Below the pieces are notes generated by a model. The model searched no databases, was not told where the DNA came from, and saw only the letters and a list, made by a program, of their open reading frames with translations. The translations under genes were made by a program, and so were the position numbers. 64,000 bases of DNA from Thermovibrio guaymasensis. GTDB lineage: Bacteria > Aquificota > Aquificia > Desulfurobacteriales > Desulfurobacteriaceae. The stretch's first letter is position 1. Each line of letters starts with the position of its first letter. Of the stretch, positions 33,184 through 40,346 are shown one piece after another. The stretch spans positions 791,331-855,330 of the forward strand of contig NZ_RBIE01000001.1 of the NCBI RefSeq assembly GCF_003633715.1. Direction: 5' to 3'.

Positions 33184-34344
33184 ATGGCCATCGAACCGAC
33201 GGTTATTGAGGGAAGAGTTCCGATTTACGTATATGCAAAGGAAATTGAACCGGAAGTTAGAGCTCAGATTGAGAGGTTAAAGGATTTACCATTCTTTAGG
33301 AATAAAATCGTAATAATGCCAGACTGCCATGCTGGCAAAGGCTGCGTAATAGGTTTTACCGGTTACTTTGATGAGGTCGTAATACCAAACATCGTTGGAG
33401 TTGACATAGGGTGCGGCGTCTACACTTACCCTCTAGGTAAAAAAGTAAACGTAAACTTGCCAAAGTTTGATGCCTTCGTTAAAGGGAAAATTCCCACCGG
33501 GTTAACATCAAGAAGTAATAAGAACGCCAAAAAGCTACCTTTAAGTAAGGAAGACAAAGAGCTCCTATCAGAGATTCGCTCAGTTCTCATAAATACCTAC
33601 AAAATTGACCTAAACGATCCTTTACTACAGGTCGGAACGCTGGGAAGTGGAAACCACTTCCTTGAACTTGGAGTTAGCGATGAAGGGGAACTATACTTAA
33701 CGGTCCACACAGGTTCAAGGAACTTAGGATTAAGGGTCTGTAATCACTTCCAGAGGAAAGCAAGGGAGTATACTCAGAAAATTATGCCTGACCTTCCGAG
33801 CGACCTCTCATTCTTACCTCTAAATAAAGGAGGAAGAGAGTACTTAAGGGCGATGAGATTTGCCCAAAGGTACGCGGACCTAAACAGAAGAACGATTTTA
33901 AAGATAATCGTAGAGGAGTTCTTCAAAGAGGAGTTTAAAGAGGAGAAGTTAATTAAGAGCGTTCATAACTATATAGACCTTGATAGGGACATGTGCGTTA
34001 GGAAGGGGGCAATCTCAGCCCATAGAGGAGAAAGGGTCGTAATACCCTTTAACTTAACAACCGGGCTAATCATAGGTAGAGGTAAAGGTGTTAAGGAGCT
34101 TAACTGTTCTGCCCCCCACGGTGCAGGAAGGAAATTAAGTAGAAGGAAGGCAAAAGAGCTCTTTTCAGTTTCAGACTTTAGGAAGGCAGTTGAAGAGGCG
34201 GGAGTTTACTCTTCTACCGTTTCAAAGGAAACCCTTGATGAAGCTCCCTTTGCCTACAAAGACCCTGAAGAAATACTGGAGTTTCTCCCAAAGAGCGTAG
34301 AGATTGAAAAGTTCGTAAAACCTATATATAACCTAAAAGGTTAG
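33184..34344 (+). CDS. rtcB: RtcB-family RNA ligase, short form
   Basis: A 386-residue RtcB-like protein, about 90 residues shorter than the E. coli and archaeal enzymes. Core motifs remain: MPDCHAGKG, VGVDIGCGV with the metal-binding Cys, LGSGNHFLEL, VHTGSRNLG, VHNYIDL, and the C-terminal CSAPHGAGRKLSR with the His that accepts GMP. The family joins 2',3'-cyclic phosphate and 5'-OH RNA ends. The physiological role here (tRNA or rRNA repair) is not shown. The start is ATG 33184 with GAGGAGAGAGGG, divergent from acnA. Confidence 0.88.
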   Translation: MAIEPTVIEGRVPIYVYAKEIEPEVRAQIERLKDLPFFRNKIVIMPDCHAGKGCVIGFTGYFDEVVIPNIVGVDIGCGVYTYPLGKKVNVNLPKFDAFVKGKIPTGLTSRSNKNAKKLPLSKEDKELLSEIRSVLINTYKIDLNDPLLQVGTLGSGNHFLELGVSDEGELYLTVHTGSRNLGLRVCNHFQRKAREYTQKIMPDLPSDLSFLPLNKGGREYLRAMRFAQRYADLNRRTILKIIVEEFFKEEFKEEKLIKSVHNYIDLDRDMCVRKGAISAHRGERVVIPFNLTTGLIIGRGKGVKELNCSAPHGAGRKLSRRKAKELFSVSDFRKAVEEAGVYSSTVSKETLDEAPFAYKDPEEILEFLPKSVEIEKFVKPIYNLKG

Positions 34345-34360
34345 GGGGACTACTCCCCCC
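34343..34360. terminator. Shared hairpin between convergent rtcB and NIT-sensor genes
   Basis: AGGGGGA-CTAC-TCCCCCCT spans both stops. No clear U-tract follows in either direction, so function as a terminator is uncertain. Confidence 0.35.
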
Positions 34361-35360
34361 TACCCCTCAAAGATGCTATTGAAACTATTAAAATAACTGC
34401 AATAGCAACAACCGACACGACAAGAACGCCGTTAAATCTACTCTTTGCCTCAAACTTAACTTCTTTAATTTTTCCAATTAAGTCCTTAGCTATAAAGAGC
34501 TCCACCTTATGCATAAGGTCTATCTTCTGAGTAATTATCCTGAACCACTGATTAGGATCAACGTTGAGAGCCCCTTTTGTAAAGGGAGATGTAAGTGCAA
34601 GCCTTTCGTAGTCGAGAACCTGCTCTGATGGTCCGGAGGAAACGACCGTCTTTTTATAAAAGTCTATTACTCTCTCTGGAGCAGCCAAGGAGAAGGACTT
34701 TATAAATGCCTTTTGCTGAGCCAAAAGGTCAACGAACTTAGTAAACAGCTTAGAATCTGGGAACATTTTATTGGCAAAAGCCACAGAAAGGACGGCCCTT
34801 TCAAGACCTGCTTTATCCTTTGCATACATAAAGTTAGTGTAAGCTAAGAGCTCGTTAGCAATTTCAGCATTTTTAGAGTTCTTAGCAAGAAGAGCTACCG
34901 AGTCAATAAGGTCGCTGTTAAGCTTTGTGTAGAAGTTAATAGCATCCTCAAGGGAAATCTGGAGAGAGTCAACTTTTACTCTTACCTGGCTTAAGTTATC
35001 AAGGCCGTTCAAAATAACCGATAAAAAGAGCTTTTGAGCCTCTCCTGAGAGGGATGAGACGAACTCCTTGTTCAAGTACTTCTCAAGCTCTTTAATCTTA
35101 AGGTCTGTGAGCTTCCTCTGTTCCTGGAGCTCTTCCTTAAAAGTCTTCCCTCCACTTCCCAGAAATCCTGCAGTTCTTCCCCTTTCCTTCTGAAGTTCAT
35201 GAACGAGCTCAGAGATTTTGGTTGACAAAATAACGCTCTTCTCAAGGGATTCGGCATTCTTTAACGAATGCCGGGCCTCAGTAAGGAGAAAGTAAGAGAG
35301 AGTAAAGATAGAGAAGAGAGAAACCAGAGATAGTAGGATAATTCTGTGTTTAAAACTCAC
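34350..35360 (-). CDS. NIT-domain membrane protein without output domain
   Basis: A 336-residue protein with an N-terminal membrane helix (~6-27), a periplasmic helical region, and a second helix near the C terminus (~308-330), followed by only about six residues. The segment LVHELQKERGRTAGFLGSG at 52-70 is the hallmark of NIT (nitrate/nitrite-sensing) domains, followed by LTDLKIKEL. Known NIT receptors continue into HAMP, kinase, cyclase or chemotaxis domains; this one stops. It starts with GTG at 35360 after GGGAGG. It is last in a leftward set with two proteins of unknown function and may signal through them. The ligand is inferred only. Confidence 0.72.
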   Translation of the reverse strand: MSFKHRIILLSLVSLFSIFTLSYFLLTEARHSLKNAESLEKSVILSTKISELVHELQKERGRTAGFLGSGGKTFKEELQEQRKLTDLKIKELEKYLNKEFVSSLSGEAQKLFLSVILNGLDNLSQVRVKVDSLQISLEDAINFYTKLNSDLIDSVALLAKNSKNAEIANELLAYTNFMYAKDKAGLERAVLSVAFANKMFPDSKLFTKFVDLLAQQKAFIKSFSLAAPERVIDFYKKTVVSSGPSEQVLDYERLALTSPFTKGALNVDPNQWFRIITQKIDLMHKVELFIAKDLIGKIKEVKFEAKSRFNGVLVVSVVAIAVILIVSIASLRGRGE

Positions 35361-35421
35361 TCCTGCCTCCCTTAAAAAGTTTTGGTAAAACTATAACCGA
35401 GGAGGCAGGAGCAAGCAAGTT

Positions 35422-36495
35422 TTAAGCTACAGGATATGCAAATTCCGGCCTTTCCTCAACCAGTTTGACTTCAGCGGCTTCCTTAGGAAGAGGAACGACC
35501 TTAACCCTTTCAACCCACCTCTCTGGAAGGTGGAGAACCCTCTTTCCTATCCTTATCGTTGCAGGGGCAACCCTAGCTCTATACTTAATTCTCACTCCCC
35601 AAACTTTCCTGCCGAACTTATTCTCAAACTCGCCGGGACCTTCAATTTCAATATCTTTAGCACTACCGGGGAAGTAAAGTCTCTTAGCGTAATGTCTGTT
35701 CCTTCCCTTGTGGAAATAAACGAGCCATAAGACCTTTCCTTCCTTATACTTAGCTTCTGTTGGAATGTACCTCTCAGCCTTCTCCTCTTCCTCTAGGAGC
35801 CTCTGGACGTACTGCTCAATTGTCTCATCTTCCCTTACTTCGTTCTCAGTCCAGACTTCAAACTCAACTTTCCAACCTTTAACTTCCGCAACTATGTTAG
35901 CAAGCTTAACGTTTCTCTTCTCTTCCCTTTCAACAAGCTCGTCTATCTTGTCAAGGATATCTGAAAACCTCTCCCTAAAATCGGAGAGTTTAGTAATAGC
36001 AACGATTAGGTCTCCCTGTTTCTTTAACCTTTCAAGGGTCTCTTCACTATCTGCCAACACCATTGCTTTCCTGATTTCACAGAAATTGCGGCGGAGCTCC
36101 TCAAGGATTTCCGGCGAGAGCTTTAGATCAACTACGCTCTCAAGGATTTCCTTCATTACTTTCTCTGGAATTTCCTTTAGCCTCTCCTCTATAGTCAGGT
36201 TGTCACTTCCCCAAGGCCTGTACTCTTTATCCCAGCCCTTGTACCTAGCAACGTAGTTAGCAAGTCTAACAGTTACTCTGTTTTCCTCACACGCAACTTC
36301 CCTTAACTCTTCAACTATTGAACCAAACTTCTTCCTCCAGAAAGGAGAATAGGTTAAAGTACACAGGTAGTCAGAACGCTTCTTTAAATCTGTAAGCTGT
36401 TCAGGCGTTTCAACTTCAAGCATCTCATCTCTGATTATGCAGTTAATACGTCTAATGTCCTCCGGTCCTTCAACCCTTCCGTAGATTACAGCCAT
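35422..36495 (-). CDS. Protein of unknown function with a 120-residue internal duplication
   Basis: A 357-residue, highly charged cytoplasmic protein, counted from ATG 36495, which follows GGAGGGAG (a GTG four codons earlier is the only longer option). Residues ~13-107 and ~133-232 are two copies of one unit with a constant 120-residue offset. Shared positions include RR-x-x-C-x-x-R, LKK, FR-x-x-F, V-x-LAN-x-VA and KGW-x-x-E-x-x-x-W. The last ~110 residues differ and look beta-rich (LWLVYFHKGRNRHYAKRLYF). I recognise no family. It lies 57 bases after the multi-winged-helix-like gene and 61 before the NIT-sensor gene on the same strand. Confidence 0.75.
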   Translation of the reverse strand: MAVIYGRVEGPEDIRRINCIIRDEMLEVETPEQLTDLKKRSDYLCTLTYSPFWRKKFGSIVEELREVACEENRVTVRLANYVARYKGWDKEYRPWGSDNLTIEERLKEIPEKVMKEILESVVDLKLSPEILEELRRNFCEIRKAMVLADSEETLERLKKQGDLIVAITKLSDFRERFSDILDKIDELVEREEKRNVKLANIVAEVKGWKVEFEVWTENEVREDETIEQYVQRLLEEEEKAERYIPTEAKYKEGKVLWLVYFHKGRNRHYAKRLYFPGSAKDIEIEGPGEFENKFGRKVWGVRIKYRARVAPATIRIGKRVLHLPERWVERVKVVPLPKEAAEVKLVEERPEFAYPVA

Positions 36496-36552
36496 CTCTC
36501 CCTCCACTAAACTTGGTTTATTATTGGGAAGGGGGAAAATCCCCCTTCTCTT

Positions 36553-38496
36553 TTAATTAAGCTTTTCAAGGGCCTCAAGGATTAAAAGGCCTGCCTCGTT
36601 AATTGAGCTCTTACCGACGAGGTTTGAAGCCCTAAGAATAACCATTTCCTCTTCAAAGGTATCAGGGTCAAGGCCGGAGAGCTTAATAGCTTCCTTAACG
36701 TTCTTCGGAAGAACCCTAACTTTCTTCTCCTTAACGTAGAGGGTTCCGACCTTCCTGAGAGCTTCCAAAACCCTAACTGCAAGAGGAGTAATCGGGTTAG
36801 CAAGGCCCTCAGGAGTTCCAGAGAGTGCCTTCTTAATAAGCTTTCCAGCCTCAGTAAGGATTATCGCTTCGTTTTGAAGGATATCTATGTAACCCCTAGC
36901 CTCAAGCTTATTGAGGGCGTACTCAACCTCTTCCTTCCAAGTCTCATCAAAGGCATCGTAAACGTCCTTAACGAAGAACCCCTTTTCAGGTATCTTGTGG
37001 AGAACTTGAAGTTCAAACCTTGTTATGTGAGGAAGCCTCCTAATTTCATAGGCCATCTGTGCGTACATCTTACCTGCTTCGGTAGCTTCACCTCCACCGA
37101 TAAGGTAAGACTGAACTCCCTTGTTGTACCAGTCAACGTTTGGAGCGGCAAACTCCTTGTTCGTGATTGTTATTGCCTTAACTGCAACGGCAGGTATTTC
37201 CCTGAAACCGCGGGTCTTCATATCCTCAAAGACCTTCTTACCATAATCGGTAAGGTAGTGAACCTTCTTTCCTTCGTAGTTTTCAGAGCGAATCAGGTTA
37301 AAGGACTCTAGAGTATAAAGGGACTCCTGAACTATGTCGTACATCTTCTTATACCACTCATTTCCTTTCTCGTAGAAGGACTTAAAGAGCTCCTCTACAG
37401 TCTTAACCTCGCTGAACTTCTTCCTGATCTCTTCCTTCTTCTGGTAGCCTAAATCCTGGTAAAGTCTTCTTCCGTAGTACTCAATCAAGTGTTTGTACTC
37501 TTTAAGGGGTTTATAGAAGAGGTAGTGAACTAGTTCATCAACTGTTGGAAGAGTTGATGGATCCTGCTCGTGGTGTTTCCAGACCTCTTCAATTCCTCTA
37601 AGGAGCTCTGCATCAAGAATTTCAACGTTAATTGACTTAACCGGCCTGAAACTCCTCTCCTTCCAAATCCTGTAAGCTTCAAGGAGGTGCTCTCCAGCTG
37701 GAAGGGGATTACCTTCATCGTCAATTAGAGCAAGCTCAAAGAGGACCTCTTTCTCCTCTTCAGTTACAGAATCAAACCCTTCATAGACCGCTCTTTCAAG
37801 CGAGTCCATAATGTCTTCAGAAATTACCGTTTCAAGGGTTGGTGCAATAGTTTCACAGGCTGCCTTTATCTCTCTACCAAGTGGAGTAAGGGCGTAAACG
37901 TCGGATGTTGGAACTGAAAAGGCTAAAAGCCTCATAGCTCCCATTAAAATCGGGAACCTTCCTCCCGCCGGAAGCATTGAAGACTCTGCAGGTCCAGCAG
38001 GCATATCCTTAATGTACTGGCATAGTTCCCTATCAATAATTAACCTAGGGTGGGCGTTTTTAAAGACTTCGTAAACGTCCTTAGCGTACTGGTTAACTGC
38101 CTTGAAAGTCCCTTTCTTCTCTACTTTCCTCTCTTCAATGAAACCTCTCTTTTCAAGCTGTTCCTCTGTTAAAGGCCCTGGAATATCGTTGTTTTCAATG
38201 GCAGTTTCAATCATCATAAGGACTTCCGATCCTAACCACCTAAAATCATCATCCCACTTTGAAGGATGGGGAATAAGCCCCTTCTCAACCATTTCATCAA
38301 GGATGTTTGCAAGAACCCTTCCCCAGTAAGTAAGGGAATACTCAAGGGGACGAACGTACCTTAAGAGGTTCATCCTCTCAAGTTCTAAGTAAGGAGGTTC
38401 CTCACTTTTAATAAAGAGCTGACACGTAGGAGCTTTATTTTTCTCCTCCTCCCTCACTCTCAAAAGCGCAAGGGCATGTTCTTTTCTAATTACCAT
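36553..38496 (-). CDS. Large protein with repeated winged-helix-like motifs (possibly DUF505)
   Basis: A 647-residue soluble protein. A motif of the form (L/A)T-x-x-G-x-x-hydrophobic, typical of the wing end of winged-helix domains, recurs at residues 53-62, 201-210, 413-423, 469-478, 545-554 and (variant) 630-640. Each is preceded by helical segments. This suggests several tandem winged-helix modules, as in DNA- or protein-binding scaffolds. It may belong to DUF505, a family I recall from thermophilic bacteria and archaea; I am not certain. The start is ATG 38496 with GGAGGGAG. It is the first of three same-strand genes that end with a NIT-domain membrane sensor. Confidence 0.75.
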   Translation of the reverse strand: MVIRKEHALALLRVREEEKNKAPTCQLFIKSEEPPYLELERMNLLRYVRPLEYSLTYWGRVLANILDEMVEKGLIPHPSKWDDDFRWLGSEVLMMIETAIENNDIPGPLTEEQLEKRGFIEERKVEKKGTFKAVNQYAKDVYEVFKNAHPRLIIDRELCQYIKDMPAGPAESSMLPAGGRFPILMGAMRLLAFSVPTSDVYALTPLGREIKAACETIAPTLETVISEDIMDSLERAVYEGFDSVTEEEKEVLFELALIDDEGNPLPAGEHLLEAYRIWKERSFRPVKSINVEILDAELLRGIEEVWKHHEQDPSTLPTVDELVHYLFYKPLKEYKHLIEYYGRRLYQDLGYQKKEEIRKKFSEVKTVEELFKSFYEKGNEWYKKMYDIVQESLYTLESFNLIRSENYEGKKVHYLTDYGKKVFEDMKTRGFREIPAVAVKAITITNKEFAAPNVDWYNKGVQSYLIGGGEATEAGKMYAQMAYEIRRLPHITRFELQVLHKIPEKGFFVKDVYDAFDETWKEEVEYALNKLEARGYIDILQNEAIILTEAGKLIKKALSGTPEGLANPITPLAVRVLEALRKVGTLYVKEKKVRVLPKNVKEAIKLSGLDPDTFEEEMVILRASNLVGKSSINEAGLLILEALEKLN

Positions 38497-38568
38497 TTCT
38501 CTCCCTCCTATCTTTATTTCTACAATTGAAGTTATATCAAATGGCTTTTTAAGTCAACTACAGAAAAG

Positions 38569-38603: not shown

Positions 38604-40346
38604 ATGATAAAGGAAATTTACGAAATAAGAAAGCTCTTATTCCTATCTGCAATTACTGGAGTAATAATAGGTCTTTTTGCCGTACTTTTCCTCAAATCGC
38701 TAGACTACAGCACCCACCTCTTCCTCGGAGAAATTGTAGGTTACACTCCTCCAAAACCGACAGGAGAAGGAGGAAGCGGAACTTACAGTTTCTTTATTGA
38801 ACACAAGTACCTCCTCCCTTTTACTACTGCTTTAGGATGCCTTATTACAGGAGCTCTAGTTTACCTCTTTTCACCGGAATCAGCAGGCATCGGAACCGAC
38901 GTTGCTATTAAGGCATTCCACTACAAACTCCCTATTAACATAAAAACGTCCATTTTCAAGCTCATAACATCAGCAATTACAATAGGTTCAGGAGGTTCCT
39001 CAGGAAGGGAAGGCCCCATGGCCTTAATTGGAGCCGGAATTGGAAGGTAGTTCGGCGAAGTCCTAAAGCTTGATAGCAGGGAGAAGAACATCCTCTTAGC
39101 AGCTGGACTAGGAGCTGGAATAGGAGCTGTGTTTAGGGCTCCCTTTGCCGGTGGAATTTTAAGCGCCGAAGTTTTCTACAAGGAAGACTTTGAAGTTGAA
39201 GCTCTAATACCAGGATTTATAGCTTCAATAGTTACTTACTTAGTGGCTGGAAGCTTTATAGGGTTCAAACCTCTATTTTCAACGTCAATTCCATTTCCAA
39301 AGTTCAACTCTGAGAAAATTGCAGGGTACATCGTCTTAGGGATAATTTCTGCACTCGTTGCAAAGTGTCTTATCTATTCCTTCTATTGGATAAGAGGAAT
39401 TTTCAACAGACTAAAACTTCACCCTATTTTAAAGCCAGCCTTCGGAGGCTTCCTCGTAGGTTTAATTGGCCTTGTTACTCCCCTTGCAGTTGGTAACTCC
39501 TACGGATGGATTCAGATCTTTATGAAGGACGGTTTAATCTACCTATCGCTCTCAAAAATTTTATTAAGCATTCCTTTAGTAATCCTAGCCCTTTCAATAA
39601 CGTTAGGTTCAGGCGGTTCAGGAGGTGTATTTGGCCCTTCACTCGTCATTGGAGGACTAACAGGAACAAGCTTAGCCTACACATTTAATCAAATGCTGGG
39701 AACCAATTTCTTTGATGTAGAAACGATGACTATCGTTGGAATGATATCAGTCTTTACTGCAGCAGCAAGCGCTCCCTTTTCTACCCTTATCCTCGTATCC
39801 GAAATGACTCAAGGGTACAACATCCTTCCTTACGCCCTAATTTCAACTACGATCGCCCACAACATAGCCGGTAAAGAGAGGACTGTATTCCAGTACCAAG
39901 TTTTAAACAGGCTGTACTCACCGATCCATAAGGATGAACTGAAAGCCTTTATCCTGAAATCTGCAAAGGTTGAAGAGGTAATGACTAGAGAAGTTATAAC
40001 CCTATCACCTGATGAGCCTGTAACAAAGGCAAGGAAGGTAATGGCAGAGAAGTTTATAGCCGGAACTCCAATAACCGTTGGAAAGAAAGTGGTAGGAATA
40101 ATAACCACATCTGACGTCCTAAAGGTTCCCCCTGAAGAGTTGAAGGAAACAAAGGTAGGTCAAATAATGACCCCAAATCCAAGGTGTGTCCTTCCACAGT
40201 GGAACCTCCTTGAGGTTATAAGAATGTTCGTAAGCGAAGGCTACGGAAGGGCTCCAGTCGTTAAAGACTTTGACAGCATGGAACTCGTCGGAATAATTTC
40301 TAGGGCCGATATAGCCCGTTACCTAGTTAAAAGGGGAATCATTTAA
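38604..40346 (+). pseudogene. ClC chloride channel with CBS pair, interrupted by one in-frame amber codon
   Basis: A single frame runs from ATG 38604 to TAA 40346 (579 amino-acid codons) apart from one TAG at 39048-39050. Both sides are clearly ClC: before it GSGGSSGREGPMALIGAGIGR, after it FGEVLKL, FRAPFAGGILSAEVF, GSGGSGGVFGPSLVIGG and two CBS domains (VEEVMTREVITLSP, VGQIMTPNPRCVLP). The stop falls inside the helix after the selectivity motif, so a truncated product of 148 residues could not work. No frameshift or other decay is visible, suggesting a recent mutation, a sequencing error or readthrough. mutL starts on the next base. It differs from the other two ClC genes here. Confidence 0.85.

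What the first reader, a model, noticed from the sequence alone, without database searches (positions are those of the whole stretch)
34350..38496. Three-gene cassette of unknown function: repeated winged-helix-like protein, duplicated-repeat protein and NIT sensor
Seen: three same-strand genes with gaps of 57 and 61 bases encode a 647-residue protein with recurrent winged-helix-like motifs, a 357-residue protein built on a duplication, and a membrane NIT-domain protein with no output domain. Inference: the sensor may signal to the two soluble proteins by contact, and the large protein may bind DNA or RNA. I know of no described system with this set. It is my best candidate for an undescribed system in this window.
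Basis: partly seen in the sequence, partly recalled or inferred. Interest (0 to 1): 0.65.

Follow-up and report, generated by a model that had tools for sequence, protein, structure and literature searches.

The report
DUF505 gene pair in thermophile module
Two of the three genes (a protein of a named but unstudied family and its partner) travel, across several phyla of heat-loving bacteria, with an apparently undescribed set of chaperone-like, RNA-binding-like and membrane proteins, while the third gene, a sensor fragment, is a local add-on whose translation start is locked in an RNA hairpin.

Summary
The three genes are real and placed as described. A (36553-38496) is DUF505 (PF04458), a named Pfam family of unknown function. 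Its model (pLDDT 92) is a chain of about eight winged-helix-like units, but they are not repeats in sequence. B (35422-36495) matches no library; its duplication is genuine (E 7e-21). C (34350-35360) is a NIT sensor cut off just after its second membrane helix; relatives continue into HAMP and MCP signalling domains.

The A-B-C order occurs only in the window's own family. A-B is the core: all 33 B-bearing Aquificota genomes, and all 3 in a second phylum, also hold A, usually unlinked outside that family. A in turn tracks a conserved cluster: UPF0128, a Csm5-like RAMP, prefoldin alpha, a prefoldin-beta-like protein and two small membrane proteins (45 of 47 genomes; UPF0128 12 of 13 in the second phylum). 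A physically joins it in Aquifex, Anaerolineales and other lineages. The window's genome carries this cluster near 470 kb of its contig.

C's Shine-Dalgarno and start codon lie in a covarying hairpin directly after B, absent where B is absent: probable translational coupling. I found no published description of the module; its biochemical role remains inferred.

The parts
36553..38496 (-). Gene A: DUF505 (PF04458) protein, 647 aa, about eight winged-helix-like units in the predicted fold
   Evidence: Pfam E 2.9e-238 over residues 1-642; AlphaFold2 mean pLDDT 92.1, pTM 0.90; present in 65 of 136 Aquificota genomes and in T. maritima and M. jannaschii controls
35422..36495 (-). Gene B: 357-aa protein of a new family; two copies of a helical unit of about 110 residues plus a basic beta-rich C-terminal domain (about 254-346)
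   Evidence: Duplication hhalign E 7e-21; fold (mean pLDDT 78.5, thin alignment); no library family above cut-off; B never found without A
34350..35360 (-). Gene C: standalone membrane NIT sensor, 336 aa, ends just after the second membrane helix
   Evidence: PF08376 E 5.9e-61; NasR 4akk E 4e-15; relatives of about 660 aa carry HAMP and MCPsignal after the same NIT domain
38531..38557 (-). Promoter-like block upstream of A (TTGACTTAAAA...TTTGATATAACTT), conserved in the family; hexamer spacing 15, so the exact assignment is uncertain
   Evidence: Read across 17 loci of the family, including genus g4, whose flanks differ
36526..36550 (-). G+C-rich hairpin between A and B; probable leaky terminator or processing site that would lower B relative to A
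   Evidence: A hairpin with changing sequence at this place in all non-g4 relatives; followed by a T run in relatives that lack B (L183, L184). Fold z only -0.8 to -1.6
35355..35416 (-). B-C hairpin: 17-bp stem (arms 35416-35400 and 35371-35355) that pairs the Shine-Dalgarno and GTG start codon (35360-35358) of C
   Evidence: z -5.8 here and -5.8 to -7.2 in four relatives; most extreme of 53 gene starts in the window, z -6.3 against -3.2 for the next; changes on both sides at stem positions -9, -8, -6, -5, -2, -1, 3, 4 relative to the start codon; no such hairpin where B is absent

Best explanation
A and B are the window's share of a thermophile module whose other genes lie elsewhere in this genome (G000:C1, about 467.7-470.8 kb): UPF0128, a Csm5-like RAMP protein, prefoldin alpha and two small membrane proteins (some relatives add a prefoldin-beta-like gene). 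Shown: co-inheritance of the families, physical joining of DUF505 to the cluster in several lineages, the domain content, the B duplication, the B-C hairpin. Inferred mechanism: no member looks like an enzyme, so the products most likely form a non-catalytic, partly membrane-attached ribonucleoprotein or chaperone assembly in which DUF505 is a long multi-winged-helix scaffold, UPF0128 its closest partner, the RAMP-like protein and B's basic domain contact RNA, and prefoldin holds unfolded client or assembly proteins at high temperature. B is an optional partner made in smaller amount than A. C is a recent local addition: the sensor half of a NIT chemoreceptor that lost its signalling half, translated only when ribosomes finishing B open the hairpin over its start.
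For: B within A: 33 of 33 Aquificota genomes (A in 65 of 136) and 3 of 3 in the phylum of G144. UPF0128, RAMP-like and prefoldin alpha found with A in 45 of 47, 46 of 48 and 45 of 47 genomes; at genus level 14 of 14 UPF0128 genera are among the 18 DUF505 genera of 30, p 2e-5; second phylum UPF0128 with A in 12 of 13, p 6e-11. Physical joining: Aquifex operon prefoldin alpha-TM-TM-UPF0128-RAMP-prefoldin beta-DUF505 with overlapping genes; UPF0128-DUF505 in three Anaerolineales and in G208 (15 nt apart); DUF505 beside prefoldin alpha in family f2 (L175, L236); A-B divergent from the two membrane genes in genus g4. Cluster without A in the second phylum (L230, L235, partly L231). Domain content. 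Hairpin. NIT-HAMP-MCP relatives.
Against: Co-occurrence p-values ignore phylogeny except through the genus count; all carriers I know of are thermophiles, so shared habitat and gene exchange could give part of the association. 16 of 65 DUF505 genomes have none of UPF0128, RAMP or prefoldin, some 98-99% complete (G098, G121, G123, G132), and 9 of 17 DUF505 genomes chosen from other loci lack UPF0128, so DUF505 can act without the cluster. RAMP assignment is below the curated cut-off (27.8 against 38.3 bits) and rests on the N-terminal part. No fold match for A or B at E below 0.001. No direct evidence for RNA binding, a complex, or membrane attachment.
Confidence: 0.45

Rival explanations
1. 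A is a DNA-binding architectural or regulatory protein of thermophiles, with B as co-factor; its link to the UPF0128/RAMP/prefoldin cluster is only shared transfer between thermophiles, without a common complex.
For: Winged-helix-like units in the predicted fold; Foldseek hits, all weak, are to winged-helix proteins such as DtxR/MntR, RPC62 and the TFIIH p52 region; 16 of 65 DUF505 genomes lack the cluster; all carriers are thermophiles.
Against: A is acidic overall (net -19); winged helices also serve as protein-protein modules; adjacency to UPF0128 recurs independently in three phyla and to prefoldin in two lineages, which transfer alone does not explain well.
Confidence: 0.25
2. One reading: a three-gene signalling cassette in which membrane NIT protein C senses an external ligand and controls A and B by contact.
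For: C is conserved as a standalone, intact gene in about twelve genomes of the family and always lies in the same order after A(-B); purifying selection; translational link to B.
Against: g3, g4 and g5 keep A-B without C; g7 keeps A-C without B; A and B are conserved far beyond the family without C. In G121 a standalone NIT gene sits instead beside an NtrC-type regulator and a histidine kinase, so the NIT module is interchangeable.
Confidence: 0.12
3. Ordinary neighbourhood: three unrelated genes in a directon; associations arise from shared ancestry of thermophiles.
For: A and B each form their own transcription unit outside the family; promoter-like block in front of A and hairpin between A and B.
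Against: A-B adjacency survives in genus g4 although all flanking genes differ; B is nested in A in two phyla; genus-level p 2e-5.
Confidence: 0.13

Closest known systems
DUF505 family (Pfam PF04458)
   Same: Gene A is a full-length member (residues 1-642 of 647 on 621 of 622 positions).
   Different: The family has no described function; no paper found under this name or accession that treats the protein.
NIT-HAMP-MCP chemoreceptors (PF08376 + PF00672 + PF00015) and the NIT regulator NasR (PDB 4akk)
   Same: Same NIT domain and same membrane topology up to the second helix.
   Different: C stops after the second membrane helix; HAMP and MCPsignal are absent. A recombinant NIT domain of another chemoreceptor bound neither nitrate nor nitrite (PMC6381276), so the ligand cannot be assumed.
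Archaeal/eukaryotic prefoldin (GimC)
   Same: The partner cluster encodes prefoldin alpha above the curated cut-off (TIGR00293, 93.9 against 53.9 bits) and in some genomes a short prefoldin-beta-like protein.
   Different: Here it is bacterial and sits in a conserved cluster with UPF0128, a RAMP-like protein and membrane proteins; I know of no such link.
Type III CRISPR effector subunit Csm5 (RAMP superfamily)
   Same: Cluster protein shares the N-terminal RAMP part with its 'PGS.I..A' motif; best NCBIfam, PADLOC and PDB matches are all Csm5.
   Different: Only about 240 aa, below Csm5 cut-offs, and encoded with prefoldin and UPF0128 rather than in the Csm gene sets its relatives come from.

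Membership tests
DUF505 (PF04458) | Whole-protein Pfam score above gathering cut-off | tested here: met
   792.8 bits against 28.7
Winged-helix repeat protein (gene A) | Several helix-helix-beta hairpin-helix units in the fold | tested here: met
   Secondary structure of a model with mean pLDDT 92
Winged-helix repeat protein (gene A) | Units recognisably repeated in sequence | tested here: not met
   1 of 36 unit pairs above the highest shuffled score
NIT-domain sensor | PF08376 above cut-off | tested here: met
   207.3 bits against 24.9
NIT chemoreceptor (MCP) | HAMP and MCPsignal output domains | tested here: not met
   No other Pfam hit in C and a few residues after helix 2; relatives have both
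NIT-domain sensor | Binds nitrate or nitrite | not testable with these tools
   Needs binding assay
Known anti-phage defence system | Match of A, B, C or cluster proteins to PADLOC models | tested here: not met
   Only weak coiled-coil (LmuB) and Csm5-type RAMP matches
Prefoldin alpha (partner cluster) | TIGR00293 and PF02996 above cut-off | tested here: met
Prefoldin beta (partner cluster) | PF01920 / TIGR02338 above cut-off | tested here: inconclusive
   PF01920 29.9 against 27.6 in one genome, 20.7 in another; TIGR02338 below cut-off
Csm5 / type III CRISPR | Csm5 equivalog score above cut-off | tested here: not met
   27.8 bits against 38.3 at best
RAMP superfamily | RRM-like RAMP fold | not tested
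Chromodomain or Rad52 (gene B) | Pfam/PDB match above threshold | tested here: not met
   E 0.01-0.15 only; the region is helical in the model

The most novel reading that the evidence does not exclude
Thermophilic bacteria, and perhaps archaea such as M. jannaschii, carry an undescribed membrane-linked ribonucleoprotein or chaperone machine outside CRISPR, built from DUF505 (multi-winged-helix scaffold), UPF0128, a single-unit Csm5-like RAMP, a prefoldin pair, two small membrane proteins and, optionally, protein B; some Desulfurobacteriaceae plug a chemoreceptor-derived NIT sensor into it through translational coupling.
Probability: 0.3. Interest if true: 0.85.

Novelty: categorically new. 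Interest (0 to 1): 0.62.

Why it matters
If the association is functional, it gives first neighbours and a testable role to two old 'unknown function' families (DUF505 and UPF0128) that mark thermophiles of several phyla, shows prefoldin and a RAMP-like protein working together outside their known settings, and suggests a heat-specific machine that textbook lists of thermophile adaptations do not include. The hairpin over C is a clean, testable case of translational coupling that stays folded, by prediction, at 70-80 C.

Tried and rejected
1) Foldseek of A against PDB and viral models and of B against PDB: nothing at E below 0.001, so no fold-based function. 2) Chromodomain and Rad52-like hits in B: E 0.01-0.15 and in a helical region; rejected. 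3) PrgI-like hit of A (E 0.007): short helical hairpin; treated as chance. 4) B in viral contigs and plasmids: none, so no sign of mobile-element cargo. 5) Hairpin between A and B as a classical terminator on the transcribed strand: rejected for the window (no T run after it) but likely in relatives lacking B. 6) RNA thermometer for C: less likely, because the stem is predicted to stay folded at 70-80 C and vanishes where B is absent. 7) Rfam: no match. 8) Literature: nothing on DUF505, UPF0128, TIGR00703 beyond one table entry for COG2083 in archaea; the library holds open-access papers only. 10) One alignment call contained a wrong reference and was replaced.

Full report
WHAT IS THERE. The window lies in an assembly of 1.62 Mb (G000, contig 1, 791331-855330); related loci named in public records are Desulfurobacteriaceae (Aquificota). 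Three genes on the minus strand run A (38496-36553), B (36495-35422) and C (35360-34350) with gaps of 57 and 61 nt. A is DUF505/PF04458, E 2.9e-238. B has no family above cut-off in Pfam, NCBIfam or PADLOC. C is NIT/PF08376, E 5.9e-61, with no other domain.

ANATOMY OF A. An AlphaFold2 model from 44 sequences of several phyla is confident (pLDDT 92.1, pTM 0.90). The order of elements shows about eight units of two helices, a beta hairpin and a helix, with a helical middle part (about 290-375). Foldseek gives only weak matches, mostly winged-helix proteins (DtxR, MntR, RPC62, TFIIH p52 region; best E 0.04). The units do not resemble one another in sequence more than shuffled controls do. A is acidic (net -19).

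ANATOMY OF B. Residues 8-118 and 119-245 are a duplication (E 7e-21), each a bundle of three helices in the model (pLDDT 78.5, only nine close sequences allowed), followed by a beta-rich C-terminal domain with net charge +11. B is strikingly conserved: 60-94% identity across families, almost without indels.

ANATOMY OF C. Two membrane helices flank the NIT domain and the protein ends a few residues after the second. The closest full-length relatives in Hydrogenothermaceae are NIT-HAMP-MCP chemoreceptors. C is therefore the sensor half of such a receptor. About twelve standalone copies in the family are intact.

NEIGHBOURHOOD. A-B-C is found in genera g1, g2 and g6 of the family; g7 has A-C; g3 and g5 have A-B; g4 has A-B in entirely different surroundings, next to two membrane genes discussed below. 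Outside the family A and B are unlinked. Even so, every B genome has A: 33 of 33 in 136 Aquificota genomes (A 65) and 3 of 3 in 147 genomes of the phylum of G144.

THE WIDER MODULE. In Aquifex A is the last gene of a tight operon (L121, L123, L189): prefoldin alpha, two small membrane proteins, UPF0128, a RAMP-like protein, a prefoldin-beta-like protein, DUF505, with overlaps of 1-8 nt. Assignments: UPF0128/TIGR00703 (E 4e-100), prefoldin alpha TIGR00293 (above cut-off), RAMP-like with Csm5 as the best match but below cut-off. The same cluster without A lies elsewhere in the window's own genome (L202, G000:C1 about 467.7-470.8 kb) and in Hydrogenothermaceae and other families. UPF0128, RAMP-like and prefoldin alpha occur in nearly the same genomes (44-46 shared of 47-48) and 45-46 of these also have A; the two exceptions, G092 and G095, are 86% and 78% complete. 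At genus level 14 of 14 UPF0128 genera fall among 18 DUF505 genera of 30 (p 2e-5). In the second phylum UPF0128 and A are together in 12 of 13 (p 6e-11). A and UPF0128 are adjacent again in three Anaerolineales and in G208, with the RAMP gene beside them in L132; A is beside prefoldin alpha in family f2. These independent joinings argue for a functional link beyond shared thermophily. The association is not absolute: 16 of 65 Aquificota DUF505 genomes lack all three, and 9 of 17 further DUF505 genomes lack UPF0128. Among 14 control genomes, M. jannaschii has DUF505, UPF0128 and prefoldin; T. maritima has only DUF505.

REGULATION. A promoter-like block upstream of A is kept through the family, including g4. 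A G+C-rich hairpin with changing sequence lies between A and B; it is followed by a T run only where B is missing, so it is probably a leaky terminator that lowers B (energy alone is not significant). Between B and C a 15-19 bp stem buries the Shine-Dalgarno and start codon of C. Its z-score is -5.8 to -7.2 in five genomes, it is the strongest of 53 gene starts in the window, its arms differ between genera while pairing is kept, with double changes at eight positions, and it is absent in the two B-less relatives tested and in MCP homologues. It is predicted to hold at 70-80 C. The simplest reading is that ribosomes ending at the stop codon of B, 8 nt before the left arm, open it: C is made only together with B.

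MECHANISM, WITH STATUS. Shown: family content, co-inheritance, physical joinings, duplication, hairpin. Inferred: a non-enzymatic, partly membrane-linked assembly with DUF505 as scaffold, RAMP-like and B's basic domain as possible RNA contacts and prefoldin as holdase. Speculative: what it does for the cell; protection or assembly of RNA or proteins at high temperature is my first guess.

VERDICT. The interesting object is DUF505-B plus the UPF0128/RAMP/prefoldin/membrane cluster; the NIT gene is an accessory. The rating 'categorically new' refers to gene content; biochemical novelty is unproved.

Noticed in passing
38604-40346 (+): ClC chloride channel-CBS gene appears split into two ORFs (38604-39050 and 39129-40346), while relatives have one gene of about 580 aa: a frameshift, a decayed gene or a sequencing error.
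   Followed up: no
L187: 5820-9232: In G121 a standalone NIT gene (with an internal TAA in the search) lies beside an NtrC-type response regulator and a histidine kinase, not beside DUF505: the NIT module moves between partners.
   Followed up: partly
G007:C21: 6961-7442: Gene B is broken into fragments with a stop in this Aquifex-type genome, although DUF505 and UPF0128 are intact: B is dispensable.
   Followed up: no
L202: 5699-8846 (-): Cluster UPF0128, RAMP-like, prefoldin alpha and two small membrane proteins in the window's own genome; bacterial prefoldin in about a third of Aquificota genomes.
   Followed up: yes
G108, G109, G111, G112 (family f5): Two UPF0128 copies per genome, one of a divergent type.
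   Followed up: no
L127, L116-L118: A MAG titled Thermotogota groups with MAGs titled WOR-3 by DUF505 sequence, gene order and the search tool's phylum: probably a mislabelled record.
   Followed up: partly
33184-34344 (+): RtcB-like gene converges on C with a gap of 5 nt; kept at this place in most of the family.
   Followed up: no
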